In this document: in pieces, positions 1,591 through 5,610 of the stretch
How the letters are laid out: each line of letters begins with the position of its first letter
How positions within the stretch are numbered: position 1 is the first letter of the stretch
Origin: Methanofastidiosum sp.
GTDB taxonomy: Archaea > Methanobacteriota_B > Thermococci > Methanofastidiosales > Methanofastidiosaceae
Length of the DNA stretch: 5,630 nucleotides
Reading direction: 5' to 3'
NCBI GenBank assembly: GCA_013329085.1
Contig: DUKX01000152.1
Coordinates: 1-5,630 of the forward strand
Made by a program: the position numbers and the translations under genes
The notes under the pieces: generated by a model
Database searches by the model: none
The model's input: the letters and a program-made list of their open reading frames with translations, nothing else
What the model was told of the DNA's origin: nothing

Positions 1591-1865
1591 CTACTTCCTA
1601 TATATCTTATCATGATGATCATAATCTAATAATCTTATTATTTTGTTTTTTTTTTTTTCATCGATTTCATATACTAAAACGAAAGATTTTGCTAAATGAA
1701 CTCTTCTAGCGCCTTTCATTTCGCCCTTTAAAGGTTTAAACATATAAGGATTTATCAAAATTTGAATTATTTTTTTATTAATAATTCTAATTGGTGTTTG
1801 TCTTTAACAAGTAATTTAACAAATTTATTTTTCAAATGTTCCGGTATTTCTAAAGAAAATCCCAT
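1591..1865 (-). pseudogene. RelE-like mRNA interferase toxin, reading frame interrupted at an A7 run
   Basis: The ATG at 1865 opens a frame reading MGFSLEIPEHLKNKF that stops at TAA after 32 codons, directly after seven A (1776-1770). One base back, the frame continues through IIQILINP, FKPLKGEMKGARRVH, SFVLVYEIDE and LLDYDHHDKIYRK to TAG at 1591. Joined, the two frames give 91 residues, the normal size of a RelE/ParE-superfamily toxin with its basic GARRVH core and DHHDKIY tail. RelE enzymes cleave mRNA on the ribosome. The start codon directly abuts the antitoxin stop (TAAATG), the usual order for such pairs. The zero-frame heptamer A-AAA-AAA followed at once by TAA fits a -1 slippery site, so the interruption could be a mutation, a sequencing error or programmed slippage. 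A 13-A tract (1658-1646) lies in the second part. Confidence 0.85.
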
Positions 1866-2087
1866 TTAAAGACCGAAATGTTCAGCAAAATTGTTAACTT
1901 TGAAGAATTTACCTTTACGTATGGTATCTAATTTCTCTTTATATTCTACAGTTATTTCTTTATCGTCGTCTAGAATCGATAAAATAAAAGTTTCTATTTC
2001 TTCATCTGGCGTAGTCCCAATTTTTTCGCAAAATAGCTCAAATTTATGATATAATTTATTGCTAATATTAAGACTTATTGAGCCCAT
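1866..2087 (-). CDS. RelB/VapB-like ribbon-helix-helix antitoxin
   Basis: This 73-residue protein looks like the antitoxin of a type II toxin-antitoxin pair. The N-terminus, SISLNIS (3-9), can form the DNA-binding beta strand. It is followed by a helix at about 10-22, a GTTPDEE turn and a second helix at about 28-39, the ribbon-helix-helix layout. The C-terminal part (about 50-73, IRKGKFFKVNNFAEHFGL) resembles the toxin-wrapping tail of RelB/VapB proteins. Such antitoxins neutralise the toxin and repress their own promoter. The stop codon abuts the ATG of the RelE-like frame with no gap. No ribosome binding site precedes the ATG, and a TATA-like element sits about 26 nt upstream, consistent with a leaderless mRNA. 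The surrounding DNA is visibly more AT-rich than the core genes, which suggests acquisition. Family naming rests on pattern and on the neighbouring toxin. Confidence 0.75.
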   Translation of the reverse strand: MGSISLNISNKLYHKFELFCEKIGTTPDEEIETFILSILDDDKEITVEYKEKLDTIRKGKFFKVNNFAEHFGL

Positions 2088-2723: not shown

Positions 2724-3266
2724 ATGTTTAAAGTTATACAGATTAGGGATACTGCAAGGGTTCCACCCAATAAATTTGGTGGGGAACTTAGCCAATCCAT
2801 AGCTGAAATCCTTCAGGGTCAGTATGAAGGGACCTGGGATAAAGATCTTGGATTTATTCTTGCTATCCACAACATCATTGAAATAGGGGATGGAAAGATA
2901 GTGCCTGGCGATGGCAGCGCCTATTATGACACAGTATTTGAGGCTTTAATTTACCTTCCAAAACTCTATGAAGTTGTTGAAGGAGAAGTTGAGGAAATAA
3001 CTGAGTTTGGCGCATTTGTAAGGCTTGGGCCCATAGATGGTCTAGTCCACGTATCCCAGCTTACAAACGACTTCATAAATTACGATAAGAAAAATAATAC
3101 TCTTTCCGGTAAGGAGAGCGGAAGAGCCCTAAAAGCAGGCGACAAGATAAGAGGCAGGATTGTAACTCTTTCCCTTAAGAGGGGTTCTGCAAAGATTGGG
3201 CTTACCATGAGACAGCCTTACCTAGGAAAGTATGAATGGATAGCAGAGGAAAAGAAAGAGGGATAA
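2724..3266 (+). CDS. rpoE1: DNA-directed RNA polymerase subunit Rpo7 (RpoE', RPB7 homologue)
   Basis: Rpo7 forms the stalk of archaeal RNA polymerase with Rpo4, binds nascent RNA and helps open-complex formation and termination. The 180-residue product has the expected two parts. An N-terminal RNP-like tip domain (about 1-80) carries IRDTARVPPNKFG and GTWDKDLGFILAI. An S1 OB-fold (about 82-164) carries VEGEVEEITEFGAFVRLGPIDGLVHVSQL in family order and ends GSAKIGLTMRQPYLG. Length is normal. The ATG follows AAGGTGG at 7-nt spacing. It is the first gene of the operon and is followed after 1 nt by spt4, the common euryarchaeal order. Confidence 0.96.
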   Translation: MFKVIQIRDTARVPPNKFGGELSQSIAEILQGQYEGTWDKDLGFILAIHNIIEIGDGKIVPGDGSAYYDTVFEALIYLPKLYEVVEGEVEEITEFGAFVRLGPIDGLVHVSQLTNDFINYDKKNNTLSGKESGRALKAGDKIRGRIVTLSLKRGSAKIGLTMRQPYLGKYEWIAEEKKEG

Positions 3267-3267
3267 A

Positions 3268-3453
3268 ATGAAGGTAGCATGCCAGAAATGTCAGAGAATT
3301 CTATATGAAAACATGTGCCCAGTGTGCAAGGATGACAAAACTACTGACAACTGGAGCGGCATTGTCGTAATAATTGATCCTGAAAGATCAAAGATAGCCA
3401 AGGCCATTGGAGTCAATGTTCCTGGTGCCTATGCCCTTAAGGTTAGGGGATGA
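3268..3453 (+). CDS. spt4: Transcription elongation factor Spt4 (RpoE'')
   Basis: A 61-residue zinc protein with C5-x2-C8 and C17-x2-C20, followed by TTDNWSGIVVIIDPERSKIAKAIG, the archaeal Spt4 signature. Spt4 pairs with the NGN domain of Spt5 (not in this window) to clamp RNA polymerase and raise processivity. The gene starts 1 nt after the rpo7 stop and uses GAGGG at 3259-3263 as its ribosome binding site, inside the previous coding end. It has historically been annotated as polymerase subunit E''. Confidence 0.95.
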   Translation: MKVACQKCQRILYENMCPVCKDDKTTDNWSGIVVIIDPERSKIAKAIGVNVPGAYALKVRG

Positions 3454-3462
3454 AGTAAAGAG

Positions 3463-3981
3463 ATGGCTCTTGTTCTCACAGAAGATCTCAGATTGAAACT
3501 AAAATCTCCTATGGGACTTCTTATAGAAGGCGATGTTGAATCCATTATGGATAGACTTTTGCCTGTAATAAGGAATAAGAGGATAATATCCGTCGGGGAT
3601 GTTGTTTCTCAAAATCTTATCGACCATGGGATTTACCCGGAACTTGTAATTGTCGATGGAAGGAACTTGAGAGCCGAAATAGACGATTGTATTGAGTGTG
3701 ATAACACAGTTACAGTTGAAAATCCTCAATCAGAGATTACTGGTGAGCTTTGGGTGGCTATTGAGCGATTATTTATGGACAAAACCAAAAGGTTTAAAAA
3801 AATATTGGTAGAGGGAGAAGAAGATTTGGCAGTTATGCCTGCTGTTCTCCACGGAGATGGGGATACAGTTGTACTTTATGGTCAGCCCGATAGGGGAATT
3901 GTGATTATTGAAGTAACAGAACAGAAAAAAAGGGAGATATCAGATTATTTAAATGAGATGGAGGGAGATCTATGGAATTAA
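3463..3981 (+). CDS. GTP-dependent dephospho-CoA kinase (DUF359 family)
   Basis: This 172-residue protein belongs to the archaeal DUF359 family, shown in Thermococcus to phosphorylate dephospho-CoA with GTP. It therefore catalyses the last step of coenzyme A synthesis, unrelated in sequence to bacterial CoaE. Recognisable blocks in order are: an N-terminal LRLKLKSPMGLLIEG; ISVGDVVSQNLIDHGIYPEL (42-61); the acidic IVDGR (63-67); VENPQSEIT (85-93, where relatives often have NPAG); LVEGEEDL (115-122); and VLYGQPDRGIV (137-147). The Asp/Glu residues in these blocks are the candidate metal and nucleotide ligands. The start is 9 nt after the spt4 stop, with GGGGATGA as ribosome binding site. The end overlaps eS24 by 10 nt. 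Its place between transcription and ribosomal genes is common in Euryarchaeota. Confidence 0.9.
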   Translation: MALVLTEDLRLKLKSPMGLLIEGDVESIMDRLLPVIRNKRIISVGDVVSQNLIDHGIYPELVIVDGRNLRAEIDDCIECDNTVTVENPQSEITGELWVAIERLFMDKTKRFKKILVEGEEDLAVMPAVLHGDGDTVVLYGQPDRGIVIIEVTEQKKREISDYLNEMEGDLWN

Positions 3982-4268
3982 CGATCGTAAACGAGAGAGA
4001 GAACCCACTATTCAACAGAAAAGAATTAGAAGTTAAAGTAATTCATGATGGTGGAACTCCTAAGGTATCAGAAGTTAGGGATAAGTTGTCTGCTTTAAAG
4101 AGCTTTAAAATGGATTCCTTTGTAGTAAGATCCATTGAAACTGGATATGGGAAGGAAGAATCTATTGCTAAGATATACGTGTACAGCGACCCAAAAACCC
4201 TAATGAGAGTCGAACAGAAATATATATTGAAAAGAAATGGCTTGATTGTGGAAAAGGAGGAAAATTAA
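3972..4268 (+). CDS. rps24e: 30S ribosomal protein eS24
   Basis: The 98-residue product is the archaeal/eukaryal small-subunit protein S24e. It opens with MELTIVNERENPLFNRKEL and has the central PKVSEVRDKLSALK and FVVRSIETGYGKEES blocks of the family, with a C-terminal IYVYSDPKTLMRVEQKY. Length is typical. The ATG lies inside the end of the dephospho-CoA kinase gene (10-nt overlap) and is preceded by GGAGG (3960-3964) at 7-nt spacing. Its stop shares one base with the next start (TAATG). Confidence 0.96.
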   Translation: MELTIVNERENPLFNRKELEVKVIHDGGTPKVSEVRDKLSALKSFKMDSFVVRSIETGYGKEESIAKIYVYSDPKTLMRVEQKYILKRNGLIVEKEEN

Positions 4269-4423
4269 TGCCGTCCATGTACAGCATAGAGGGAGACAAG
4301 GTAATTAAAAAGAATCCTTACTGCCCAAGATGTGGCCCTGGCACATTTATGGCCGACCACAAGGACAGATTTGTATGTGGCAAATGTGCATACACCCAAT
4401 CCAAAAAATTAGAAAAAAAATAG
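4268..4423 (+). CDS. rps27ae: 30S ribosomal protein eS31 (S27ae), zinc ribbon
   Basis: A short gene of 51 codons reading MPSMYSIEGDKVIKKNPYCP and ending QSKKLEKK. It carries a four-cysteine zinc ribbon, C19-x2-C22 and C37-x2-C40, with CPRCGPGTFMA and RFVCGKC characteristic of archaeal S27ae. This is the ubiquitin-free counterpart of the eukaryotic ubiquitin-S27a fusion. GGAGG (4256-4260) sits 7 nt before the ATG, supporting this start over the Met at codon 4. The start overlaps the eS24 stop by one base. It is the last gene of the operon; in many archaea kae1 follows, but here a terminator and sepF do. Confidence 0.96.
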   Translation: MPSMYSIEGDKVIKKNPYCPRCGPGTFMADHKDRFVCGKCAYTQSKKLEKK

Positions 4424-4427
4424 ATAA

Positions 4428-4457
4428 TAACTATTGTTTAACAATAGTTAAACTTTT
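4428..4457 (+). terminator. Palindromic hairpin plus T-run ending the rpo7-rps27ae operon
   Basis: TAACTATTGTT (4428-4438) and AACAATAGTTA (4440-4450) are perfect inverted arms around a single T. In RNA the middle bases would form a loop of about 5 nt on a 9-bp stem. AAC and then TTTTTT follow (to 4459). It begins 4 nt after the eS31 stop. The T-run alone could suffice for an archaeal polymerase, and the perfect symmetry would also suit a protein-binding site. Confidence 0.6.
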
Positions 4458-4472
4458 TTAACTGCTGTTGTA

Positions 4473-4490
4473 AGCGAAAACTATAAAAAG
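4473..4490 (+). promoter_or_regulatory. BRE/TATA promoter of the sepF-zpr1 unit
   Basis: GCGAAAAC (BRE-like) is followed directly by TATAAAAAG, a strong archaeal TATA box at 4482-4490. Transcription would begin near 4510-4515 and give a leader of about 45-50 nt. The box lies after the upstream terminator, so sepF is expected to be transcribed independently of the ribosomal operon. Confidence 0.6.
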
Positions 4491-4499
4491 GGTTAGTTA

Positions 4500-4537
4500 C
4501 ATATTAATAGTTAGCGTTAGTATTAATGATTAATATG
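4500..4537 (+). repeat. Repeated TATTAAT half-sites in the sepF leader, candidate operator
   Basis: TATTAAT occurs at 4502-4508 and 4521-4527, and its reverse complement ATTAATA at 4529-4535. The last two form the perfect palindrome TATTAAT-G-ATTAATA. The outer copies form a 9-bp inverted repeat (CATATTAAT at 4500-4508, ATTAATATG at 4529-4537). The cluster lies around and just after the predicted start site and ahead of the ribosome binding site, where a bound repressor could block transcription. It is AT-only sequence, so chance cannot be excluded. Confidence 0.4.
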
Positions 4538-4547
4538 GGCTCCATAA

Positions 4548-4555
4548 GGAGATGA
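4548..4555 (+). promoter_or_regulatory. Ribosome binding site of sepF
   Basis: GGAGATGA, preceded by AA, matches most of the archaeal Shine-Dalgarno consensus and lies 4 nt before the ATG at 4560. It fixes the sepF start. ATGs at 4552 and 4555 inside it lead only to a stop at 4561. Confidence 0.6.
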
Positions 4556-4559
4556 TGTT

Positions 4560-5036
4560 ATGAGAAGACTCAATAAACTGTTTGGTAGGGATGATAGTCA
4601 AGACTACGGTGAGTACGATGAAAACTACTACCCTGATGAGTATTATCAAGATGAGGAGACTACGGAAGATGAATCATGGGCTGAAGACGAAAAGTCAGAG
4701 TCTCCAAGGGCTATTAGAGAAGTAGAGTCAATTCCATACGAGGAAGAGGTTCTAAAAAGAAACGATTTCATGGACTATGGGGTCGTTTATGTAAAATCCT
4801 TGAAGCTCAGAGGGCTTGGGGACATAAGAGATATTTCTAAACAGCTCTCAGAGGGACACATCCTGATAGTTGATATCGGTCTTTTGGCAGAGAGGGAACC
4901 GCTTGAACTTAAGAGAGCCGTTGACCAGATCAAAGGTATTCTAAGAGGTATTGGCGGGGATATTGCTGGTATTAGTGAGCGAAAGATTTTAATAGCCCCT
5001 GCGTCTGTCAAGATTGTAAGATCACATGAGCAATGA
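4560..5036 (+). CDS. sepF: Archaeal SepF cell-division protein, FtsZ membrane anchor
   Basis: SepF tethers FtsZ to the membrane at the division site in archaea that use FtsZ, which lack FtsA. The 158-residue product shows the three expected parts. A short basic amphipathic N-terminus (MRRLNKLFGR) can serve as membrane anchor. A strongly acidic, Tyr/Asp/Glu-rich flexible linker covers about 11-64. The compact SepF/DUF552 core covers about 72-154 and includes YVKSLKLRGLGDI, EGHILIVDIGLL, AVDQIKGILRGIGGDIAGIS and ILIAPASVKI. Length is near the archaeal norm. It is the first gene after its own promoter and overlaps the zinc-finger gene by 11 nt. No ftsZ lies within the window. Confidence 0.92.
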   Translation: MRRLNKLFGRDDSQDYGEYDENYYPDEYYQDEETTEDESWAEDEKSESPRAIREVESIPYEEEVLKRNDFMDYGVVYVKSLKLRGLGDIRDISKQLSEGHILIVDIGLLAEREPLELKRAVDQIKGILRGIGGDIAGISERKILIAPASVKIVRSHEQ

Positions 5037-5610
5037 GAACGTAGAATGCGATTATTGCCCTTCGTGCAATAAAAAATCGCTTAGAGTAACCAATACTATT
5101 ATTTCTATCCCTTATTTCGGGGAAGTTCTAGATTTTACTATTCTTTGTAGTAACTGCGGTTATAGAAGGGCAGATATTATGCCCATAGAGGTTAAAGAGC
5201 CGTCAAGATATTCTTTAAACGTTGAATCTGCGTGTGATGCAAGCATAAGAATTGTCAAATCTAGCACCTGCACCATTAGAATCCCTGAACTTGGCGTTAC
5301 AGTTGAACCTGGACCGTTATCTGAAGGCTATATCAGCAATGTAGAAGGCCTACTTTCCAGGATATCAAAAGTTATCAGCATGGGGATGAAGATGGGGGAA
5401 GATGAAGAGAAAAAGAACGGTAAGGAATTAATTGACAGGATAAATAAGTTGGTAGAAGGCCAGGAAACTGTCTGCATAATTCTAGAAGACCCGTTGGGTT
5501 ATAGTGCGATTGCCTCTGATAAGGCTAGAAGGGAATCATTGACAAAAGAAGAATTAAAAGATCTGAAATATGGAGATTCAGATTTTGAAATAATACCAGA
5601 TGCTTGTTAA
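5026..5610 (+). CDS. ZPR1-type zinc-finger protein
   Basis: The 194-residue product matches the archaeal ZPR1-related family. It carries a four-cysteine zinc finger, C11-x2-C14 then C41-x2-C44, with the 26-residue gap typical of ZPR1, flanked by FTILCSNCGYRRADI. The rest forms the beta-rich domain that follows the finger in this family (SRYSLNVES, RIPELGVTVEPGPLSEGYISNVEG, ILEDPLGYSAI). Eukaryotic ZPR1 binds, and assists folding of, translation factor eEF1A; the archaeal role is less well established, so a chaperone-like role with aEF1A is only an inference. The ATG at 5026 lies 11 nt inside the end of sepF. No ribosome binding site is evident (TTGTAAGATCAC precedes it), so re-initiation by coupled ribosomes is likely. 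The sepF link may reflect shared growth control rather than a joint mechanism. Confidence 0.88.
   Translation: MSNENVECDYCPSCNKKSLRVTNTIISIPYFGEVLDFTILCSNCGYRRADIMPIEVKEPSRYSLNVESACDASIRIVKSSTCTIRIPELGVTVEPGPLSEGYISNVEGLLSRISKVISMGMKMGEDEEKKNGKELIDRINKLVEGQETVCIILEDPLGYSAIASDKARRESLTKEELKDLKYGDSDFEIIPDAC

What the first reader, a model, noticed from the sequence alone, without database searches (positions are those of the whole stretch)
1763..1790. RelE-like toxin split by one base at A7 directly followed by a stop: pseudogene or -1 frameshifting
The two halves of a normal 91-residue RelE-like toxin lie in adjacent frames. The break is exactly at seven A on the coding strand (1776-1770), phased as ATA-AAA-AAA-TAA. 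A single -1 slip on A-AAA-AAA restores the full toxin, and eight A would also restore it. The coding sequence on both sides is otherwise well conserved, including the C-terminal DHHDKIY. So the lesion is very recent, an indel error in a homopolymer, or a device keeping toxin synthesis low. RelE family knowledge supports the intact reconstruction; frameshifting itself is inferred.
Basis: partly seen in the sequence, partly recalled or inferred. Interest (0 to 1): 0.7.

Follow-up and report, generated by a model that had tools for sequence, protein, structure and literature searches.

The report
Archaeal toxin gene broken by frameshift
A small RelE-type toxin gene in a methane-archaeon genome is split into two reading frames; three close relatives carry it in one frame, and comparison with them places the lost base beside, not inside, its run of seven As, so it is most likely an ordinary, recently broken gene and not a frameshifting device.

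Summary
The split is real. On the minus strand an antitoxin-like gene (1866-2087) is followed by a 32-codon frame (1767-1865) and, in an adjacent frame, a 55-codon frame (1591-1758). They match the two ends of a RelE-superfamily toxin. The A7 lies at 1776-1770, phased ATA-AAA-AAA-TAA. The window lies in an unnamed draft genome of the genus Candidatus Methanofastidiosum.

In the three other genus genomes that hold the pair, at the same slot, the toxin runs through the break in one 89-codon frame (one has ATC for its start). The best single gap lies upstream of the A7 (1777-1786) against each. Intact L003 has the identical string ATAAAAAAATAA in another phase, so slip site and stop are not made by the lesion. 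Downstream RNA folds no better than shuffles. 48 of 53 wider loci have an open frame across the site.

Both halves keep coding constraint, so the lesion is recent, or an error. A 49-residue stub cluster with one lysine fewer, on six contigs, speaks against an error private to this contig. Accidental leaky slippage is not excluded.

Verdict: most likely a recent frameshift pseudogene; low interest.

The parts
1866..2087 (-). antitoxin-like gene, 73 codons, stop abutting the toxin ATG
   Evidence: ORF; the same gene precedes the toxin in the 3 other genus genomes that hold the pair. Pfam RelB only 12.7 bits against a cut-off of 22.4, so named by position, not by family.
1767..1865 (-). N-terminal toxin fragment, 32 codons, ends at TAA
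   Evidence: ORF; 66-72% identical to the toxin N-termini of three genus relatives; no family hit on its own.
1777..1786 (-). stretch in which comparison with relatives places the one-base difference
   Evidence: single-gap scan against L002, L003, L004; blastn alignment printed for L004's locus only.
1770..1776 (-). A7 run, phased A-AAA-AAA before TAA
   Evidence: sequence. The identical 12-base string lies in the one-frame toxin of L003 at 2981-2992 in another phase.
1591..1758 (-). C-terminal toxin fragment in the adjacent frame, 55 codons from an internal TTG
   Evidence: ORF; TIGR02385 RelE_StbE 36.3 bits, above its cut-off of 27.9; 80-85% identical to three genus relatives.
1646..1658 (-). 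A13 run, two extra lysine codons compared with relatives, frame kept
   Evidence: run list; six-base gap there against L004's locus; no extra codons there in 22 full-length relatives.

Best explanation
This is a RelE-superfamily toxin gene, likely knocked out recently by loss of one base just upstream of its run of seven As, beside an antitoxin-like gene that stays open. Ribosomes in the first frame would stop after 32 codons (inferred from sequence). By the predicted fold of a full-length relative, the first piece holds only the first strand, the first helix and part of the second helix, and 2 of the 13 invariant residues. The second piece would need an internal start and lacks the first part of the fold. 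Neither piece is predicted to work alone, so the locus most likely makes antitoxin without active toxin (inferred, untested). The A7 and the stop after it do not come from the lesion: a one-frame relative has the same letters in another phase.
For: One 89-codon frame through the break at the same slot in the 3 other genus genomes (of 9) that hold the pair. Gap placement upstream of the A7 in 3 of 3 comparisons. The Asn before Lys-Lys is invariant in 5 of 5 genus-type N-termini, though not in the wider family. The identical ATAAAAAAATAA lies in L003, and the out-of-frame TAA in L002 and L003. 48 of 53 wider loci have an open frame across the site, seven of them with runs of 7 or 8 A there. pN/pS is low in all three blocks (N 0.20-0.33, C1 0.14-0.24, C2 0.00-0.08), near the values among relatives: little time since the lesion. 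P0001, a 49-residue C stub (98% identical, one lysine fewer than the window, 4 member sequences on 6 contigs), is nearest; the best full-length one is 84% identical. Break inside helix 23-38 of a confident model of P0002.
Against: No reads were available, so an assembly error is not excluded. Low pN/pS is also what a functional frameshifted gene would show. A-AAA-AAA is correctly phased for a -1 slip. Against L003 the margin for the upstream placement is only 1-2 mismatches, and the three relatives share ancestry. One of the three (L004) has ATC where the start codon is expected, so its own toxin may be silent. C1 pN/pS is slightly higher for the window than among relatives, on few sites. The contigs behind P0001 could not be opened: the shared lesion is inferred from the stub's length, and the tool lists P0001 as the window's own, so some of the six contigs may be the window's.
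Confidence: 0.74

Rival explanations
1. Assembly or sequencing error: the living cells carry a continuous toxin frame and the contig lost one base.
For: Draft genome, 247 contigs, 77% complete, contig of 5.6 kb; coding constraint intact in both halves; some of P0001's six contigs may be the window's own.
Against: The best gap position is not inside the long homopolymer. P0001, a stub with one lysine fewer than the window and hence another sequence, is on 6 contigs, the longest of 60,679 bases. The six other window genes scanned against Pfam (besides the locus) are open. Two other RelE/ParE-type matches in the same genome lie in open frames (one has an unread base near its end).
Confidence: 0.15
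2. Accidental leaky bypass: the gene is broken, but slippage of RNA polymerase or ribosome on the adjacent A7 gives a little full-length toxin, so selection still sees it.
For: A laboratory drift of one gene found frameshifting indels bypassed in repeats of 3-8 bases, and its authors suggest that some are bypassed at an adjacent repeat (PMC3812077, abstract and passages). Low pN/pS in both halves.
Against: No expression data. That study's long A repeat was A8, in a laboratory system. The conserved halves are equally explained by a recent lesion.
Confidence: 0.08
3. Programmed -1 ribosomal frameshifting at A-AAA-AAA sets a low toxin dose, as in the archaeal fucA1 gene.
For: Heptamer in the right phase directly before a stop. 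Archaeal fucA1 uses A-AAA-AAT (PMC8211752, passages). A conserved A_AAA_AAR is thought to be used in magnesium chelatase genes of some methanogens (PMC5009743, passages).
Against: Phasing absent in the three genus relatives, whose genes are continuous. No downstream structure above shuffles: z 0.26, 112 of 200 fold at least as well. The A7 is also in a one-frame relative. In-frame A-AAA-AA[AG] occurs 19 times in 54 ORFs of 11,714 codons, orthologues counted repeatedly. In E. [quoted passage not shown]
Confidence: 0.03

Closest known systems
RelE/StbE-type toxins (TIGR02385, RelE/ParE superfamily)
   Same: The C half and full-length relatives pass the TIGR02385 cut-off. The model of P0002 matches solved RelE, YoeB and ParE toxins, best 3g5o_B, TM 0.75 by query and 0.82 by target.
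   Different: The window's copy is in two frames; the three genus relatives are in one.
YafQ toxins (TIGR00053, PF15738)
   Same: TIGR00053 is the best-scoring NCBIfam model for three full-length relatives (62-66 bits).
   Different: Below the curated cut-off of 87.25 bits and below the Pfam YafQ cut-off of 30, so not filed as YafQ.
fucA1 of Saccharolobus solfataricus, -1 programmed frameshifting
   Same: A-rich heptamer phased for a -1 slip in an archaeal gene split into two frames (PMC8211752, passages).
   Different: There the slip is shown by translation, and a putative stem-loop and rare codons flank the site. Here no structure above shuffles, and the split is absent from the three genus relatives.
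Frameshifting indels bypassed near homonucleotide repeats (PMC3812077)
   Same: A one-base indel close to a repeat in an otherwise conserved gene.
   Different: No bypass has been shown here.

Membership tests
RelE/StbE toxin family (TIGR02385) | score above the curated cut-off of 27.9 bits | tested here: met
   C half alone 36.3 bits; three full-length relatives 43.7-45.1. The N half alone has no hit.
RelE/StbE toxin family (TIGR02385) | RelE/ParE fold | tested here: met
   Tested on the full-length relative P0002 only: model pLDDT 88.7; 26 PDB matches at E <= 0.001, whose titles name RelE, YoeB, ParE or YafQ toxins, Helicobacter proteins or a pneumococcal toxin-antitoxin complex.
RelE/StbE toxin family (TIGR02385) | single open frame encoding the whole toxin | tested here: not met
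   Window copy split; met by three genus relatives, of which L004 has ATC at the start.
RelE/StbE toxin family (TIGR02385) | ribosome-dependent mRNA cleavage (recalled) | not testable with these tools
   No assay available.
YafQ family (TIGR00053) | score above the curated cut-off of 87.25 bits | tested here: not met
   62-66 bits for three full-length relatives; 46.1 for the window's C half.
Type II toxin-antitoxin pair | antitoxin gene directly upstream in the same direction | tested here: met
   Stop and ATG abut in the window, L002 and L003; L004 has ATC at that place.
Type II toxin-antitoxin pair | antitoxin belongs to a known antitoxin family | tested here: inconclusive
   RelB 12.7 bits against a cut-off of 22.4; no family above cut-off for relatives' antitoxins.
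-1 programmed ribosomal frameshifting | X-XXY-YYZ heptamer in the zero frame | tested here: met
   A-AAA-AAA before TAA.
-1 programmed ribosomal frameshifting | split and heptamer phasing conserved in relatives | tested here: not met
   0 of 3 other genus genomes with the pair.
-1 programmed ribosomal frameshifting | downstream RNA structure as stimulator | tested here: not met
   80 bases downstream fold no better than shuffles, z 0.26. Pseudoknots not tested.
-1 programmed ribosomal frameshifting | fused product in cells | not testable with these tools
   No proteome or Ribo-seq.

The most novel reading that the evidence does not exclude
The A-rich Lys-Lys-Ile stretch of this toxin family is a hidden safety cassette: out of frame it reads as a slip site plus stop, so an upstream indel turns the toxin from full to trace dose instead of null, and Methanofastidiosum lineages repeatedly pass through such low-dose alleles while keeping the antitoxin.
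Probability: 0.05. Interest if true: 0.6.

Novelty: new member of a known kind. Interest (0 to 1): 0.12.

Why it matters
Mostly as a caution: a perfect-looking slippery heptamer before a stop can be left by the Lys-Lys-Ile codons of an A+T-rich gene after an indel elsewhere. Comparison with one-frame relatives shows where the lesion lies and that the 'cassette' does not come from the break. If low-level bypass were shown, slippage would be setting the dose of a toxin in an archaeon. The 2021 review that I read in passages says that only one archaeal case of -1 programmed frameshifting has been reported, fucA1 (PMC8211752).

Tried and rejected
Lesion inside the A7 run: rejected as the best placement, because a gap there costs more mismatches against each of three relatives, though only 1-2 against L003. 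Conserved programmed frameshifting: rejected, because those relatives are continuous. Stimulatory RNA structure: none above shuffles. Old pseudogene: not supported, because both halves are conserved. YafQ membership: cut-offs not met. Homologues in viral contigs: none by tblastn for P0005. Same toxin in 61 genomes of the phylum (the window's own, one of the order, the rest of the class; no other genus member in that sample): matches only in the window's own genome. The C half also has weaker matches elsewhere in three genus genomes, at 40-64% identity, taken as paralogues and not followed. Solved structures by sequence: two Helicobacter entries for P0005; the same and YafQ, weakly, for the C half. 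Antitoxin search: two clusters, 92% and 79% identical; neither tells whether the split is shared. The search for N-terminal stubs found two short clusters, P0120 (74 aa) and P0121 (63 aa), neither of them the window's 32-residue piece. Paper searches: Methanofastidiosum with toxin-antitoxin, 0 papers; ribosomal frameshifting with antitoxin, toxin and slippery, 3 papers, and from titles and abstract starts I saw no split toxin gene; two broader ones, listings only.

Full report
What is there. The window is contig C229 of a draft genome (G000; 1.57 Mb, 247 contigs, 77% complete). The genus is inferred: three other genus genomes hold the same locus, and their loci give the same blastn scores as L002, L003 and L004. 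L003 and L004 are records of Candidatus Methanofastidiosum methylothiophilum; L002 is titled only Euryarchaeota archaeon. On the minus strand, between a tRNA-splicing endonuclease gene and a ferredoxin-like/geranylgeranyl-reductase-like pair ('ferredoxin' is recalled from the sequence), lies a toxin-antitoxin-like locus. The antitoxin-like frame is 1866-2087. Its stop abuts the ATG at 1865 of a 32-codon frame that ends at TAA (1769-1767). The rest of the toxin lies in the adjacent frame, down to the stop at 1593-1591. The C half passes the NCBIfam RelE_StbE cut-off (36.3 against 27.9 bits). The N half has no family hit alone but matches the N-termini of three relatives at 66-72%.

Relatives have one frame. 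The pair is found in 4 of 10 genus genomes, the window's own included. The other three (G002, G003, G009) hold it in the same slot. In all three the toxin runs in one 89-codon frame through the break; in one of them, L004, ATC stands where the start codon is expected. In the other 6 of 10 the pair was not found, and endonuclease and ferredoxin-like genes lie about 50 bases apart. Of 53 wider loci found by the C half, 48 have a long enough open frame upstream of the C part and 5 do not; one of the five (L053) is at a contig edge. Seven of the 48, L003 among them, hold a run of 7 or 8 A in the 45 bases before the C part. This openness was tested by length, not by homology.

Where the lesion lies. 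I placed one gap at every position of the window's coding strand from 1811 to 1700 against each relative. The fewest mismatches are at 1784 (L002: 15), at 1786-1784 or 1779-1777 (L003: 26), and at 1786-1784 or 1782 (L004: 22). At or inside the A7 the counts are 18-19, 27-28 and 25-26. So the best place is upstream of the run in all three, by 3-4, 1-2 and 3-4 mismatches. These are not independent tests, because the relatives share ancestry. An Asn just before Lys-Lys, invariant in 5 of 5 genus-type N-termini, agrees: the window's own frame reads Ile there. In the wider family that position varies.

The 'cassette' does not come from the break. L003, with a one-frame toxin, contains the identical string ATAAAAAAATAA at 2981-2992, beginning at the second base of codon 30. 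There it is read as part of Asn-Lys-Lys-Ile. The out-of-frame TAA at codon 33 is present in L002 and L003, and absent in L004. A stop directly after the run is therefore what this codon string gives when read out of phase. Runs of 7 or more A or T: 5 in the window, 4.07 expected. In-frame A-AAA-AA[AG]: 19 in 54 ORFs of at least 100 codons from the window and 13 loci, with orthologues counted repeatedly. Downstream RNA folds no better than shuffles (z 0.26; 112 of 200).

Age and generality. pN/pS was computed for separate blocks. N block: 0.20-0.33 between window and relatives, 0.24-0.31 among relatives. C1: 0.14-0.24 against 0.08-0.16. C2: 0.00-0.08 against 0.08-0.11, with synonymous sites saturated. 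There is no sign of long decay; the numbers are small. In the protein collection the nearest C-half match is P0001: 49 residues from an internal Met, 98% identical over 91% of the query, 4 member sequences on 6 contigs. It has one lysine fewer in the run than the window. The best full-length match is 84% identical; one 40-residue stub (P0097) is 88% identical over 76%. P0001 is thus another sequence that is also a stub, which speaks against an error private to this contig. But the tool marks it as the window's own, some of its contigs may be the window's, and none could be opened: the shared lesion is inferred. By my own reading, 12 clusters look like this genus's toxin (10, 2), out of 121 listed, of which I read 15 in full and 22 in alignment. 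Five are full length (89 aa: P0002, P0003, P0005, P0006, P0007). Seven are short: P0001, P0004, P0097, P0101, P0102, P0120, P0121. Short ones may also come from contig edges or from start-calling. P0004 matches L004, the copy with ATC at the start. Repeated loss of this toxin is a hint, not a result.

What the pieces would do. The model of the full-length relative P0002 (pLDDT 88.7) has strand 4-6, helices 9-21 and 23-38, strands 53-58, 62-69 and 74-82, and helix 83-87. It matches solved RelE, YoeB and ParE toxins (best 3g5o_B). The break falls in the second helix. Of 13 invariant columns among 22 proteins, 11 lie in the C part. The N piece would lack those, and the C piece would lack the first strand and helix. 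Neither is predicted to act alone; this is inference. The window's two extra lysine codons (A13) fall in the loop between the last two strands and are seen in none of the 22.

Literature. The 2021 review that I read in passages reports one archaeal case of -1 programmed frameshifting, fucA1 at A-AAA-AAT with a putative stem-loop and rare codons (PMC8211752). [quoted passage not shown] coli (PMC5009743). A laboratory-drift study, abstract and passages, found indels bypassed by slippage in repeats of 3-8 bases, some possibly at an adjacent repeat (PMC3812077). That makes leaky rescue at the A7 possible, not programmed.

Verdict. A RelE-type toxin gene broken most likely by a recent one-base loss beside, not in, the A7. 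Confidence 0.74; assembly error 0.15; accidental leaky bypass 0.08; programmed frameshifting 0.03.

Noticed in passing
window 1646-1658: A13 run in the C half adds two lysine codons that none of 22 full-length relatives has. P0001 has one lysine fewer than the window; if its codons are all AAA that would be an A10. Runs of 13 or more are expected 0.008 times per window.
   Followed up: partly
L004:974-976: The orthologous toxin in G002/L004 has ATC where L002 and L003 have ATG; the matching called protein P0004 starts at an internal Met (53 aa). A second, independent possible silencing.
   Followed up: partly
L068, L071, L072, L074, L075, L076 (between endonuclease and ferredoxin-like genes): In 6 of 10 genus genomes the toxin-antitoxin pair is not found and the flanking genes lie about 50 bases apart, which suggests that the pair comes and goes as a unit at one slot.
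   Followed up: partly
proteins P0097, P0101, P0102, P0120, P0121: Short versions of the same genus's toxin, some nearly identical over their length to full-length ones; P0120 and P0121 look shifted out of frame at different places. Could be repeated loss, contig edges or start-calling.
   Followed up: partly
L083, L084 (G000 contigs C219 and C183): The window's genome holds other small RelE/ParE-like frames that are open, with possible antitoxin genes nearby; the one in C219 has an unread base near its end.
   Followed up: no
window 2724-5610: Plus-strand run of conserved genes, four of which were scanned and are open: Rpb7-like RNA polymerase subunit, DUF359 protein, SepF-like cell-division protein and ZPR1-type zinc-finger protein.
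   Followed up: no
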